Shown here: positions 15,108-20,511 of the stretch, in pieces
Numbering within the stretch: position 1 is the stretch's first letter
Layout: every line of letters begins with the position of its first letter
Assembly (NCBI GenBank): GCA_030833725.1
Contig: JAURGP010000009.1
Coordinates: 1 to 53,357, forward strand
DNA: 53,357 nucleotides
Reading direction: 5' to 3'
Source of the DNA: Candidatus Kapaibacterium sp.
GTDB lineage: Bacteria; Bacteroidota; Ignavibacteria; Kapaibacteriales; Kapaibacteriaceae
Notes under the pieces: model-generated
Database searches by the model: none
The model's input: only the letters and a program-made list of their open reading frames with translations
What the model was told of the DNA's origin: nothing
Position numbers and translations under genes: made by a program

Positions 15108-16025
15108 ATGTTGAACGGAAACGTCGTCAGACTGCTTACCATGTGGATTGTCGTGATGATCACGGCAGGAAACGTGACATCCCACGCGCAGGAATTGGAT
15201 GCCCGCGTAACCGTGAACATGGATGCCATCCAGATGGATCAGCGCATGGAGGCCCGCACCATGGCTGCCGACGTGGAGCGATACCTCAACAACCAGCGCT
15301 ATACGGGCCAGGATTGGGAGGGTGAGCGTATTCCGGTGGACATCACCATCTACCTGATGTCGCGCAGCGGTAATCGATACATGGGACGGTTGGCCATCGT
15401 CAGCCGTCGGCTGGCGAATGGGGAGCCCAATACCGGAGGCCCCCTACTTCGCATCTTCGATCAGGAGTGGACATTTGAATGGTCGTTCAACCCCGTGCTG
15501 AACTACCAGACGATGCGCTATGATCCGTTCAGCAGTGTCATCGACTTCTACGTCCTGCTGGCCATCGGTCTGGATGCTGATACCTACGACGATCTTGGTG
15601 GAGACCCCCTCTACAATGCGGCCAAGCAGATCGCCCAGCTTGGTAGTGCAACGGGCATTTCCAGCTTCTCGACAACGTTTCAGCCGGGCGAGATTACGCG
15701 CATGTCGATTGTGACCGAGCTGACCGATCCTCGGTTTAACGGTCTTCGTCGGATCTTCTACGACTACCATGTAGCCATGGATGAGTATGCGTTGGACCCT
15801 GAAAAGGGAAGGACACAGATGCTCGTCGTTCTGGACGATCTCGCCTACTTCAAGCAGAACTCCATTTCCAATCGGTCGGCCCTACTGGACGTGTACTTCG
15901 ATGCCAAGGCGGGTGAGTTGGCTGACATGTTCCGTGGGATGAAGGATGCGAAGGTATGGGACACGCTCCGCTACCTCGACCCCTCGAACTCACAGATGTA
16001 CGAGTCTGCTTCGCAAGGGAAGTAG
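15108..16025 (+). CDS. porD: PorD-like type IX secretion protein (DUF4835)
   Basis: 305 residues from the ATG at 15108, which has AGGAG at a good distance (ATCAGGAGTACACGC) and gives a signal peptide with the end TSHAQ. After that come QELDARVTVNMDAIQ, DITIYLMSRSGNRYMGRLAI, EWTFEWSFNP and a long helical tail. This is the DUF4835 layout, annotated as the T9SS protein PorD in Porphyromonas. PorD is needed for T9SS secretion, by an unclear mechanism. Its presence agrees with the three T9SS-sorted proteins in this window. No other T9SS genes (porK, L, M, N) lie here. Confidence 0.78.
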   Translation: MLNGNVVRLLTMWIVVMITAGNVTSHAQELDARVTVNMDAIQMDQRMEARTMAADVERYLNNQRYTGQDWEGERIPVDITIYLMSRSGNRYMGRLAIVSRRLANGEPNTGGPLLRIFDQEWTFEWSFNPVLNYQTMRYDPFSSVIDFYVLLAIGLDADTYDDLGGDPLYNAAKQIAQLGSATGISSFSTTFQPGEITRMSIVTELTDPRFNGLRRIFYDYHVAMDEYALDPEKGRTQMLVVLDDLAYFKQNSISNRSALLDVYFDAKAGELADMFRGMKDAKVWDTLRYLDPSNSQMYESASQGK

Positions 16026-16057
16026 ACCGAACGTAGAAGGGAAAGTAGATCACCTGC

Positions 16058-17251
16058 ATGGCAACACCTGCCGCTCTGCGCCACGAAGACATGATGAGTA
16101 TTGCCCTCGAGGAGGCGGCGCAAGCTGCCGCCGAGGGTGAGGTTCCCGTTGGTTGTGTGATTGTGCATAACAACGACGTGATTGCTCGTGGCCACAACGA
16201 AGTGGAACAAACCGGCGACCCGACGCGTCATGCCGAGATGATAGCCATCGAGCGCGCCGTGGAGCGGTTGGGGACGAAGTTCCTGGACGATTGTACGCTG
16301 TATGTTACGCTTGAGCCCTGTACGATGTGCGCCGGAGCCATGGTGCTGGCTAGGGTTCCTACCATGGTGTACGGAGCCGACGAGCCCAAGACCGGAGCCG
16401 TGCGCTCGCTCTTTGAAGTGGCCGACGATCCACGGTTGAACCATCGATGTATCGTTCGGTCGGGAGTGAAGGCCGACGAAGCCAGAAACATGCTCACCAG
16501 CTTCTTTGCTGATCGACGATCCGGTAGCAGTACTGCTGAGGAGCCTGTTGCATCGGAGCAGACGGGGCAGAAGGGGCAGCTGGTATTGGTGCCAACGCCG
16601 ATTGGCAATCTGGAGGATATCACGAAGCGAGCGCTGGATACCCTTCGCGATGCCGATGTGATTCTCTGCGAGGATACGCGACGTACGGGGCAGTTGCTAC
16701 GGCACTACGGGCTGGGCAGCAAGCGAATGGTCAGCTATCACGAGCACAACGAACGCGAGCGAGCTGCCGAAATCGCAGAGCGTGTTGGGAGAGGCTACAC
16801 CGTAGCGCTGGTGTCGGATGCTGGCATGCCAGGCATTTCAGACCCTGGCTTTCGTGCTGTGCTGGCCTGTTGCAACGCCGGACTCACCGTCACGGCTCTG
16901 CCAGGGGCGTCGGCGGCTGTAACGGCGGCGGCCGCTTCCGGACTACCCACCGATGAGCTGTATTTTGTAGGGTTTCCACCCCAGAAGAAAGGTCGGCGCA
17001 CCTTCCTTGAGCGTGTACTCGAGGCCTCGGCAACCATCGTGATGTATGAATCTCCGCACCGCATCGAGCGGCTGTTAAGCGAGGTTTGCGAGATTGCCGG
17101 CAGTGATCGCCAGGTTGTGGTCGCCAGGGAGCTTTCGAAAGCGTACGAGGAGTACCTTCGAGGGACGGCTGCTGATGTTGCCGCCACGATTGCCTCTCGG
17201 GGTGGTATCAAAGGAGAGTGTGTTGTGCTTGTTGCGGGAAGGTTGCTGTAG
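16058..17251 (+). CDS. tadA-rsmI: Fused tRNA adenosine deaminase TadA - rRNA methyltransferase RsmI
   Basis: One open frame of 397 residues carrying two complete enzymes. Residues 1-150 are TadA, which converts A34 to inosine in tRNA-Arg: the zinc site is H58-A-E60 and P87-C88-x-x-C91 (HAE, PCTMC). After a 20-residue Ser/Thr/Glu/Gln linker, residues 172-397 are RsmI, which 2'-O-methylates C1402 of 16S rRNA: LVLVPTPIGNLEDITKRAL, CEDTRRT (204-210), YHEHNE, VSDAGMPGISDPG and LPGASAAVTAAAASGL. No stop or frame break separates them and both active sites look intact. Tmk follows after 2 nt. A fusion of these two RNA-modification enzymes is unusual. Confidence 0.95.
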   Translation: MATPAALRHEDMMSIALEEAAQAAAEGEVPVGCVIVHNNDVIARGHNEVEQTGDPTRHAEMIAIERAVERLGTKFLDDCTLYVTLEPCTMCAGAMVLARVPTMVYGADEPKTGAVRSLFEVADDPRLNHRCIVRSGVKADEARNMLTSFFADRRSGSSTAEEPVASEQTGQKGQLVLVPTPIGNLEDITKRALDTLRDADVILCEDTRRTGQLLRHYGLGSKRMVSYHEHNERERAAEIAERVGRGYTVALVSDAGMPGISDPGFRAVLACCNAGLTVTALPGASAAVTAAAASGLPTDELYFVGFPPQKKGRRTFLERVLEASATIVMYESPHRIERLLSEVCEIAGSDRQVVVARELSKAYEEYLRGTAADVAATIASRGGIKGECVVLVAGRLL

Positions 17252-17253
17252 TC

Positions 17254-17874
17254 ATGTTTATCTCGTTCGAGGGGATCGACGGCAGTGGGAAATCCACCCA
17301 GCTAGGCATGCTGCGAGCATGGCTGGAGGAGCGTGGGCGCACCGTGCTGACCGTCCGGGAGCCCGGAGCGACGCATCTGTCGGAGTCCATCCGGGAGATC
17401 CTGCTAAGCAACAAGCAGACCATCACTCCTACGGCGGAGTTACTGTTGTTCTCTGCTGCGCGTACACATTTGGTGGAAACCGTGATCCGTCCGGCACTGG
17501 AGCGTGGAGACGTGGTGCTCTGTGATCGCTACGTGGATTCCACGACGGCCTACCAGGGACATGGACGGCAACTTGATCTGGAGCAGGTGGCACTGTGTAA
17601 CCGATTGGCTACGCAAGGTGTCCTTCCTTCGCTGACGTTCTTCATCGACGTGCCGTACGACGAGGCACAGCTGCGCATGCAGTTTCATCCTACAGGCACC
17701 GAGCCGGATCGGATGGAGCGGAGTGGCCGTGACTTCTTCGAGCGTGTTCGTGCCGGCTACCTCTCCATCGCGGCCAGTGAGCCGCAGCGGTTCGTGGTGA
17801 TTCCCGGTGTGCAGGATCGTACAGCAATCCACGAGCAGATCTGCGCACAGATCGTGCCGATGCTGCGCGGCTGA
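17254..17874 (+). CDS. tmk: Thymidylate kinase
   Basis: 206 residues from the ATG at 17254, 2 nt after the TadA-RsmI stop. It phosphorylates dTMP to dTDP. The P-loop is GIDGSGKST (7-15). The DR-Y motif is in LCDRYVDSTTAYQG, and the LID region follows in the C-terminal third. A frame from 17218 would overlap the previous gene and add unrelated sequence. The order tadA-rsmI, tmk suggests co-transcription. Confidence 0.94.
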   Translation: MFISFEGIDGSGKSTQLGMLRAWLEERGRTVLTVREPGATHLSESIREILLSNKQTITPTAELLLFSAARTHLVETVIRPALERGDVVLCDRYVDSTTAYQGHGRQLDLEQVALCNRLATQGVLPSLTFFIDVPYDEAQLRMQFHPTGTEPDRMERSGRDFFERVRAGYLSIAASEPQRFVVIPGVQDRTAIHEQICAQIVPMLRG

Positions 17875-17910: not shown

Positions 17911-20511
17911 ATGGATTCAACTGGCATGAAGAACCTTCTTGCTTTCGTTGCCTTCGTGGTACTTGCTGGTAGTGCCTTTGCCCACACCCCTCGCGTTGTA
18001 GACGCACGGTCCGTGCTGACAACCATGACGACTTCGGGTAAGCATGCCTCGGCGCAGTCCACGGCCTTCGAGCGTCTGGTGCTGCTACAGCACGATGCCG
18101 CCGCAGCGGCCTTTGCCTCTGGCGATGCCACACTGACCCTCACGAACGTTGAAGTTCCTCTGCACGGAACCCTCACGCTGGATTTACGGCGCACGGCATC
18201 CGTGTTCGATGCCAACACGAAGTTCATGGTGAACACCAAAGATGGTGGCAAACCATTTCCGGTGCGTCCTATTCACTCCTATGCCGGTACCGTTGTCGGT
18301 GACGAAGGCTCGTGGGTAACCCTGCACTACTCCGATGGCGATCTAACGGGCTTCATCCAGCACGGTACTGGCCAACGAACCGTGGTAGGGCGGGCTTGGG
18401 AACATCGCAGTGCAAAGGGCGCTACGCCCCATGCCTTCTCCGATGAAGCGTCGGTACCTGGTGGTGCAGCGCTGAACAACTTCTTCTGTGGAGTGGACGA
18501 CAGCAAGCTCGATGCATCGCAGATCGTGCCGAATATGCTGGTGCCAAGCAGCCTAAACAAGAGCAGTACACAGGGCGGTAAGAAGATGGACGACATGCAG
18601 TCCATGCCACTGAAGCAAATCTCCGTGGCACTTGCACTGCGCGAGGATATCGACTCTACACTCAAGTTGCGCGGATACACCAACGAACAAACAGCCCAGC
18701 ACTTTGCCAAGATCGTGGCCTGTATGTCGCAGGCCTACGAGCAAGACATGCGTGCTCGGCTCTACATCAGCTACGTGTTCGTGTACACCGAGGAAGACCC
18801 TTCCTTCTTCTTCTACGACGGCGCTGCTCCGGGCGAACTGCTGGAAGAGTTTAGCCAGAGCTGGTCGAGCAGCTTCAACGATGTAGATCGCACTGTAGCA
18901 CACCTCTACACGCGTAAGAAACCGGTAGGGGGCTTGTACGTTGGGGGCATCGCCTACCTCGACAAGATGTGCAACAAGGCCTACCGTGGTGGATACGGTG
19001 TGAGCACCGTGGACCTGACCAATCCGGATAACCTGCCAGGCAGCCCCTCGAGTCGTAATGCCTTCGTATGGGACGTCTTCGTGGCTGCTCACGAGATCGG
19101 TCATAACGTAGGCGCTCCCCACACCCACAACTGCTACTGGAGCCCTCCTGTAGACACGTGCATGATTCAGAGCGATGGAACGGATGCCTGCTACGATAAT
19201 GCTGCATTACGCCGTGTGATCCCCGGTACCATCATGAGCTACTGCCACCTGCGCAACGGTAGCAGCACACCACTCACCTTTGGTCCTCGCGTGGCTGAAC
19301 GGATGCGCACCTGGATTGAGAAAGCCCCCTGCATCGTGGACGTACCAAATCCATACGTGAACCTCACCTCCCCACGAGGCACCGATAGCTATGCTGGAGG
19401 ATCGAGCATGCAGATTCAGTGGACGTCGGCCCGAGTGGACCGCGTGAACCTGGATTGGAGCCCGGATGGTGGGACAACGTGGAATGCCATTATTGGCAAC
19501 ATTCCAGCGGTGGACAGTCAGTACGTATGGACACTTCCGGCGGTGGGGACATCGCGTCTGGTGATTCGTATTTCGGATGCGTCGGACGCCTCCGTGTTTG
19601 CAACGTCCATTGCCCAGTACACCATCGACGTACCGCTCGAAGTGCTCAACCCTGTTGGGGGTGAGCGCCTTGGCGTAGGAACCACCTTCAGCATCCGTCT
19701 GAAGAAGGACAACACGATTCCAACGGTCAAGTTGGAATACACCAATGGAACTGGTCAGTGGCAGACGATTACCGAGGGTCTCGCCCAAGCCGTGTATCAG
19801 TGGACCGTGCCAGACGAGCCTACCAATGAGGCACGCATTCGCGCCGTGGCAACGAATAACAACCAGATCGTCGCTACCAGCAACGTGTTTGCCATTGGCG
19901 TTCCTGTGGTAGATCTGCGTATCCCGCAGGAGGGTGGCGAAATCTGCAACAATCAGGCGAATCAGTTCCGCTGGTATGCGGACTTTGTGGACCGCGTGCG
20001 GATTCAGTACTCGGCCGACGGTGGCACCACGTGGGAGCGCGCCGTGCAGGCCATTACGGTACCGGCAGATCAGATTGAGCTCTTTAGCATTCACCCCTCG
20101 TTGAACAGCGTCCCAGAAGGAACGAAGATCTCGCTGCGCATCGTCGAGTCGGTGAGCGAGCAGGTATTGGCCTCGCTGAACGAGCTCACCGTCGTGCCAT
20201 GTTCGGTGGTAGTGTCGGTTGACGAGGACGCTGCTGTTGGGGTCACTGGAGGCATGCAGATTGTGCGCGTATCTCCCAATCCGGCGAGCACGCAAGCCAT
20301 GCTGTGGCTGAACAGTGCTCGCGCGACTACCGTAGAGATTGTTGCGATCGATGTTGCCGGTACGGCTGTGACGCTTTCGAGTACCATTGCCGTGCAGGCA
20401 GGAGAGAATACCGTTTCGCTACCAGTGCAACGGCTGTCGCAAGGCACCTACCGCCTGGTAGTCCGCTCGGCTGCGGGTCAAGTGGACGTGCCACTTCAGA
20501 TTCTTCACTAA
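17911..20511 (+). CDS. Secreted M12B-type zinc metalloprotease with T9SS sorting domain
   Basis: 866 residues with a signal peptide (MKNLLAFVAFVVLAGSAFA; the internal ATG at 17926 is an equal start candidate). A propeptide-like region precedes the reprolysin-type catalytic domain. The zinc site is H394-E-I-G-H-x-x-G-x-x-H (HEIGHNVGAPH), and the Met-turn is at M442 (IMSYCH). This is the metzincin signature. Several Ig/fibronectin-like modules follow (about 485-780, repeated WSPDGGTTW and YSADGGTTW segments). The last 80 residues (VSPNPASTQAMLWL, LSQGTYRLVVRS) form a T9SS sorting domain. The predicted site is the cell surface or outside. The substrate is not known. Confidence 0.9.
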   Translation: MDSTGMKNLLAFVAFVVLAGSAFAHTPRVVDARSVLTTMTTSGKHASAQSTAFERLVLLQHDAAAAAFASGDATLTLTNVEVPLHGTLTLDLRRTASVFDANTKFMVNTKDGGKPFPVRPIHSYAGTVVGDEGSWVTLHYSDGDLTGFIQHGTGQRTVVGRAWEHRSAKGATPHAFSDEASVPGGAALNNFFCGVDDSKLDASQIVPNMLVPSSLNKSSTQGGKKMDDMQSMPLKQISVALALREDIDSTLKLRGYTNEQTAQHFAKIVACMSQAYEQDMRARLYISYVFVYTEEDPSFFFYDGAAPGELLEEFSQSWSSSFNDVDRTVAHLYTRKKPVGGLYVGGIAYLDKMCNKAYRGGYGVSTVDLTNPDNLPGSPSSRNAFVWDVFVAAHEIGHNVGAPHTHNCYWSPPVDTCMIQSDGTDACYDNAALRRVIPGTIMSYCHLRNGSSTPLTFGPRVAERMRTWIEKAPCIVDVPNPYVNLTSPRGTDSYAGGSSMQIQWTSARVDRVNLDWSPDGGTTWNAIIGNIPAVDSQYVWTLPAVGTSRLVIRISDASDASVFATSIAQYTIDVPLEVLNPVGGERLGVGTTFSIRLKKDNTIPTVKLEYTNGTGQWQTITEGLAQAVYQWTVPDEPTNEARIRAVATNNNQIVATSNVFAIGVPVVDLRIPQEGGEICNNQANQFRWYADFVDRVRIQYSADGGTTWERAVQAITVPADQIELFSIHPSLNSVPEGTKISLRIVESVSEQVLASLNELTVVPCSVVVSVDEDAAVGVTGGMQIVRVSPNPASTQAMLWLNSARATTVEIVAIDVAGTAVTLSSTIAVQAGENTVSLPVQRLSQGTYRLVVRSAAGQVDVPLQILH

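What the first reader, a model, noticed from the sequence alone, without database searches (positions are those of the whole stretch)
16058..17251. TadA-RsmI fusion joins tRNA A34 deaminase to 16S rRNA C1402 methyltransferase
One frame contains the full TadA zinc site (HAE, PCTMC) and the full RsmI motifs (PIGNLEDIT, CEDTRR, SDAGMPGISDPG) with a polar linker. Both enzymes modify RNA at or near the decoding centre (wobble base and the P-site rRNA). A single polypeptide would couple their levels. The two genes are normally separate.
Basis: partly seen in the sequence, partly recalled or inferred. Interest (0 to 1): 0.7.

Follow-up and report, generated by a model that had tools for sequence, protein, structure and literature searches.

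The report
Fused TadA and RsmI RNA-modifying enzymes
In one family of uncultured, Bacteroidota-like bacteria, the enzyme that edits the decoding base of an arginine tRNA and the enzyme that methylates the ribosome's decoding centre are made as a single protein, apparently after two neighbouring genes merged once; it is a real, apparently unreported but mechanistically modest gene fusion.

Summary
Window 16058-17251 (+) is one 397-aa open frame holding a complete TadA (tRNA A34 deaminase) and the RsmI catalytic core (16S C1402 2'-O-methyltransferase), joined by a ~20-residue disordered linker. It is not an assembly error: the same fusion, without a stop, is in all 23 held species (7 genera) of the same family. 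It holds the only TadA of each of these genomes, and the only RsmI of 20; three have an extra RsmI-like gene. All catalytic residues checked are invariant. Both domain trees put the fused sequences in one group, so one fusion event suffices. In the rest of the order the genes are separate but usually adjacent (tadA upstream); some overlap, and in four genomes they abut in frame as TAA-ATG, one substitution from fusion. In 40 sampled genomes outside the order they are not adjacent. The genome has the expected substrate (one tRNA-Arg ACG, its only A34 tRNA) and the partner rsmH. Best reading: a bifunctional protein with two independent catalytic modules on a flexible tether, born by stop-codon loss in an operon. 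Level coupling follows from the architecture; any functional coupling is untested. No report of this architecture was found in the held literature. Modest interest.

The parts
16058..17251 (+). Whole tadA-rsmI fusion gene, 397 aa, ATG start, TAG stop
16082..16519 (+). TadA domain (residues 9-154)
   Evidence: Pfam PF14437 9-154; NF008113 over its cut-off; 2b3j S. aureus TadA E 2e-42; AF2 pLDDT mostly above 90 when TadA relatives are in the alignment
16229..16237 (+). HAE zinc and proton-shuttle motif (residues 58-60)
   Evidence: invariant in 24 of 24 fused sequences
16316..16330 (+). PCTMC zinc motif (residues 87-91)
   Evidence: C88 and C91 invariant in 24 of 24
16502..16507 (+). FF of the C-terminal TadA helix (residues 149-150)
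   Evidence: invariant in 24 of 24
16520..16573 (+). Interdomain linker (residues 155-172): polar, unconserved, predicted disordered
   Evidence: mean column conservation 0.26 against 0.76 and 0.72 in the domains; pLDDT under 50 at 157-169; FF-to-PTPIG distance 24-38 residues, 59 in one species
16574..17248 (+). RsmI methyltransferase core (residues 173-397), without the C-terminal ~50 residues found in many RsmI
   Evidence: TIGR00096 positions 2-220 of 275; E. coli RsmI 5hw4 E 2e-55; pLDDT mostly 80-97; C-terminal comparison
16814..16849 (+). SDAGMPGISDPG motif; D262 equals E. coli RsmI D100 (AdoMet binding)
   Evidence: D262 and A286 (E. coli A124) and R335 (E. coli R174) invariant in 24 of 24; roles of D100, A124, R174 from PMC5053481
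14958..16025 (+). Upstream neighbour on the same strand, DUF4835 protein (32 bp upstream; start codon chosen here)
   Evidence: PF16119 E 2e-48
17254..17874 (+). Downstream neighbour, thymidylate kinase, ATG 2 bp after the fusion's stop
   Evidence: PF02223 E 2e-45; sequence

Best explanation
A bifunctional enzyme. The N-terminal module is a working TadA that deaminates A34 of tRNA-Arg(ACG) to inosine; the C-terminal module is a working RsmI core that 2'-O-methylates C1402 of 16S rRNA (after or together with RsmH). The two modules fold and act independently on a flexible tether. The fusion arose once, in the ancestor of this family, when the stop codon between an adjacent tadA-rsmI operon pair was lost in frame, and it has been inherited vertically since. 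Its sure consequence is that the two activities are translated one to one. Shown: architecture, spread, single group in both trees, intact catalytic residues, substrate tRNA, partner gene, gene-order precursors. Inferred: that both activities work in the cell, that the protein stays uncut, and the order of evolutionary steps.
For: One open frame with both equivalog matches over their curated cut-offs. Present in 23 of 23 species of the family, as the only TadA match over or near the cut-off and the only RsmI match in 20 of 23. Catalytic and cofactor residues invariant. tRNA-Arg(ACG) present once and the only A34 tRNA found; rsmH present. Fused sequences form one group in the TadA tree (93/90, in 98% of bootstrap trees) and the RsmI tree (100/98). 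In 31 of 37 unfused genomes of the order tadA lies directly upstream of rsmI on the same strand; overlaps in genomes such as G026 and G053; TAA immediately followed by ATG in frame in G558, G569, G570, G571. Linker disordered and unconserved.
Against: No biochemistry, no proteomics, no 16S gene in this MAG to inspect C1402. The RsmI module lacks the C-terminal ~50 residues of many RsmI proteins, though unfused relatives lack them too. RsmI function rests on sequence family only. Root placement is not settled, so one loss of fusion elsewhere cannot be strictly excluded.
Confidence: 0.87

Rival explanations
1. The fusion is functional coordination: the tether brings the two activities together, for example the TadA module gives RsmI extra RNA or 30S binding, or tRNA editing is coupled to late 30S maturation.
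For: Kept in 23 of 23 species with no reversion seen; both products act at decoding (established knowledge; RsmI role in PMC5053481).
Against: The linker is unconserved, varies from 24 to 59 residues and is predicted disordered; no conserved interdomain surface was found; the missing C-terminal RsmI extension predates the fusion, so TadA did not replace it; operon neighbourhood alone explains the origin. Retention is expected anyway, since splitting would need a new stop, start and ribosome-binding site.
Confidence: 0.09
2. The reading frame is fused but the working proteins are separate, by proteolysis in the linker or by internal translation initiation of rsmI.
For: The linker is a disordered, cleavable-looking stretch. 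In the window TTG and GTG codons preceded by GAAGGGG lie at the RsmI start.
Against: 5 of the 23 species have no in-frame ATG, GTG or TTG in the linker or first RsmI residues (L004, L007, L013, L014, L019), and in the window such a start would cut off part of the first strand. No promoter-like site within 15900-17400. Cleavage is not testable here.
Confidence: 0.06
3. Assembly or binning artefact joining two genes.
For: The source is a draft assembly of 92 contigs.
Against: The same fusion in 23 species assembled separately, including a 1-contig genome, G004, and in the named record JANJTN010000061.1.
Confidence: 0.01

Closest known systems
TadA, bacterial tRNA adenosine(34) deaminase (NF008113/PRK10860; PDB 2b3j, 1z3a)
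   Same: Full domain, HAE and PCxxC zinc site, C-terminal FF helix; the substrate tRNA-Arg(ACG) is present
   Different: Known TadA in the solved structures is a free ~160-170 aa protein; here it has a C-terminal RsmI
RsmI, 16S rRNA (cytidine-1402-2'-O)-methyltransferase (TIGR00096; PDB 5hw4, 3kwp, 9pzg)
   Same: Full class III methyltransferase core, AdoMet-site D100 and A124 and R174 equivalents conserved; rsmH present
   Different: Fused behind TadA; lacks the C-terminal ~50 residues (model positions 221-275), as do unfused relatives in the order
Unfused tadA-rsmI operon pairs in the same order (e.g. G569, G026, G054)
   Same: Same two genes, same order and strand; TAA-ATG in frame or overlapping ends in some
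   Different: A stop codon separates the genes

Membership tests
TadA (tRNA A34 deaminase) | Match to the curated TadA model over its cut-off | tested here: met
   NF008113 159 bits against 150
TadA (tRNA A34 deaminase) | Zinc site HxE and PCxxC intact | tested here: met
   H58, E60, C88, C91 invariant in 24 of 24
TadA (tRNA A34 deaminase) | Substrate tRNA-Arg(ACG) encoded | tested here: met
   one gene, L139; no other A34 anticodon among the tRNAs called
TadA (tRNA A34 deaminase) | Deaminates A34 to inosine | not testable with these tools
   needs assay or tRNA sequencing
RsmI (16S C1402 2'-O-methyltransferase) | Match to the curated RsmI model over its cut-off | tested here: met
   TIGR00096 221.9 bits against 167.9
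RsmI (16S C1402 2'-O-methyltransferase) | AdoMet-site residues of E. coli RsmI (D100, A124) and R174 | tested here: met
   D262, A286, R335 invariant in 24 of 24 (roles from PMC5053481)
RsmI (16S C1402 2'-O-methyltransferase) | C-terminal extension of about 50 residues (common, but not part of the solved E. coli catalytic core) | tested here: not met
   absent here and in unfused RsmI of the same order, present in most RsmI of other phyla sampled; family model cut-off is still passed
RsmI (16S C1402 2'-O-methyltransferase) | Target C1402 in 16S rRNA | tested here: inconclusive
   no 16S gene found in this assembly; rsmH, which acts on the same base, is present
RsmI (16S C1402 2'-O-methyltransferase) | Methylates C1402 ribose | not testable with these tools
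   needs assay

The most novel reading that the evidence does not exclude
The tether has a function: one protein coordinates wobble editing of tRNA-Arg with decoding-centre methylation of the 30S subunit, for instance by joint dimerisation of both modules or by docking TadA on ribosomal particles, so that Arg CGN decoding and P-site fidelity change together.
Probability: 0.09. Interest if true: 0.6.

Novelty: new variant of a known kind. Interest (0 to 1): 0.36.

Why it matters
It joins an enzyme that is essential in E. coli and B. subtilis (TadA; stated in PMC4014445) to a usually dispensable fidelity factor, so the second cannot easily be lost without touching the first. It gives a clear, datable example of operon adjacency, gene overlap, TAA-ATG abutment and finally fusion in one order, and a natural test of whether two decoding-related modifications gain from being tethered. 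It also matters for annotation: automatic naming may report only one of the two functions.

Tried and rejected
Assembly error: rejected by 23 species. Independent fusions elsewhere: G029, G054 and G438 gave same-frame or full-length matches, but each has one or two stops between the genes. Idea that TadA replaces the missing C-terminal part of RsmI: rejected, unfused relatives lack it too. Conserved internal start for a separate RsmI: not conserved. Promoter inside the gene: none found. First structure model had a poor TadA half because the alignment held almost no TadA rows and one of them was misplaced; a second model with TadA relatives fixed that half. Mixed alignments A3 and A4 were dropped because MAFFT laid RsmI rows on TadA. 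Named organism for the family: the one genome-contig scan gave only one fused record, titled 'bacterium isolate RX1_metabat.bin.9', so the lineage name is not established. Literature searches found no TadA-RsmI fusion.

Full report
OBSERVATION. The frame at 16058-17251 (+) is a single 397-residue ORF from ATG to TAG. Residues 9-154 match TadA-type deaminases (PF14437, PF00383) and residues 175-374 the tetrapyrrole/RsmI methylase fold (PF00590). Both halves pass the curated cut-offs of function-level NCBIfam models: TIGR00096, 16S rRNA (cytidine(1402)-2'-O)-methyltransferase, 221.9 bits (cut-off 167.9), and NF008113/PRK10860, tRNA adenosine(34) deaminase TadA, 159 bits (cut-off 150). The best solved relatives are RsmI proteins (3kwp, 9pzg, 5hw4) for the C-terminal half and TadA proteins (2b3j, 1wwr) for the N-terminal half.

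NOT AN ARTEFACT. The same fusion, with no stop inside, is found in every genome of the same family held: 23 species in 7 genera including the window's own, among them a single-contig genome (G004). One member, G005, has a longer linker (59 residues from the TadA FF to the RsmI PTPIG motif), so its match is split in two, but the frame is open throughout. One named public record carries it, JANJTN010000061.1 (L021), whose domains are identical to those of G002. In each of the 23 genomes this is the only strong TadA; in 20 it is the only RsmI match, while G008, G009 and G013 have one further RsmI-like gene. So the fusion must supply TadA, and in most of these species RsmI too, if those functions exist there.

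SPREAD. In all 123 genomes of the order that are held, full-length matches without a stop occur only in this family. A class sample of 197 and a phylum sample of 395 gave no other fusion; a fusion with a very different linker could split into two matches and be missed in those larger lists, as G005 shows. In 37 unfused genomes of the order (my count) 31 have tadA directly upstream of rsmI on the same strand, two have them about 0.9-1.3 kb apart, and four have them on different contigs. In 40 genomes of other orders, one per genus and nearly all from different families, the two genes are not adjacent; the nearest are about 4 kb apart in G214. One genome of another order in the class, G438, does have adjacent genes, separated by a TAG and 66 bases.

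ORIGIN. Domain trees place all fused sequences in one group, in the TadA tree with 93/90 support (98% of bootstrap trees) and in the RsmI tree with 100/98. One fusion event followed by vertical descent is enough. The unfused relatives show plausible steps: ends that overlap or nearly touch (family f5: L106, L113), genes in the same frame with one stop between (G054), and in G558, G569, G570 and G571 the tadA TAA is followed at once by the rsmI ATG in the same frame, a configuration that one substitution would turn into a fusion. These are not the ancestors of the fused family; they show that the route is open.

INTACT ENZYMES. Across the 24 fused sequences (23 species plus the duplicate record) the TadA zinc and proton-shuttle residues H58, E60, C88, C91 and the C-terminal FF are invariant; so are the RsmI residues D262, A286, R335, equivalent to E. 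coli D100, A124, R174, the first two vital for AdoMet binding and the third highly conserved and placed at the RNA backbone in a docking model (PMC5053481). The genome encodes one tRNA-Arg with anticodon ACG, the classical TadA substrate, and no other A34 anticodon was called. RsmH, which methylates N4 of the same C1402, is present. No 16S gene is in this assembly, so C1402 itself could not be checked.

THE JOIN. The linker is alanine-, proline- and charge-rich, poorly conserved (mean 0.26 against 0.76 and 0.72 in the domains) and predicted disordered at residues 157-169 in both structure models. No single model is confident in both halves, since the aligner could not place both sets of rows together. 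The RsmI half ends where many RsmI proteins of other phyla run on for about 50 residues; the unfused RsmI of the order also stop there, so this loss is older than the fusion and was not caused or compensated by it.

HOW IT MOST LIKELY WORKS. Two independent catalytic modules on a flexible tether, translated one to one. Both parent enzymes are homodimers in known structures (RsmI: PMC5053481; TadA: established knowledge), so the fusion is probably a dimer or a larger assembly; this is inference. Nothing found requires the two activities to help each other. The two genes upstream and downstream on the same strand, DUF4835 and thymidylate kinase, lie 32 and 2 bp away and suggest an operon.

SEPARATE CHAINS? 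Internal initiation of RsmI is possible in the window by TTG or GTG codons, but 5 of 23 species have no in-frame start codon near the junction, so it is not a conserved feature. Cleavage cannot be tested here.

NOVELTY. Searches of the held literature for TadA with RsmI and fusion, and for related phrases, found no report of this architecture; subscription papers and protein databases could not be searched. Each enzyme is well known and gene fusion of operon neighbours is a known kind of event, so I rate it a new variant of a known kind. The lineage looks like Bacteroidota (secretion tail domain PF18962 and DUF4835 nearby); from gene content and genome sizes I suspect Kapabacteria, but this is a guess that no tool here tested.

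Noticed in passing
L196, L197, L198, L199 (G569, G558, G570, G571): tadA TAA followed directly by in-frame rsmI ATG: two genes one substitution from fusion.
   Followed up: partly
G009:C7:77308-77991, G013:C21:245010-245702, G008:C7:61750-62457: Second RsmI-like gene inside open frames of 615-685 aa in three fused genomes; similar 33-38% paralogues occur in most genomes of the class. Function not examined.
   Followed up: no
L101-L120 and L060, L069, L073: RsmI without the C-terminal ~50 residues throughout this order and in Neomarinimicrobiota, unlike most other phyla sampled.
   Followed up: partly
window 17911-20511 (+): Reprolysin-like M12B metalloprotease domain with a Por_Secre_tail (type IX secretion) C-terminus, two genes downstream of the fusion.
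   Followed up: no
G000 assembly: No 16S rRNA gene match in a genome rated 98% complete; probably a MAG gap.
   Followed up: no
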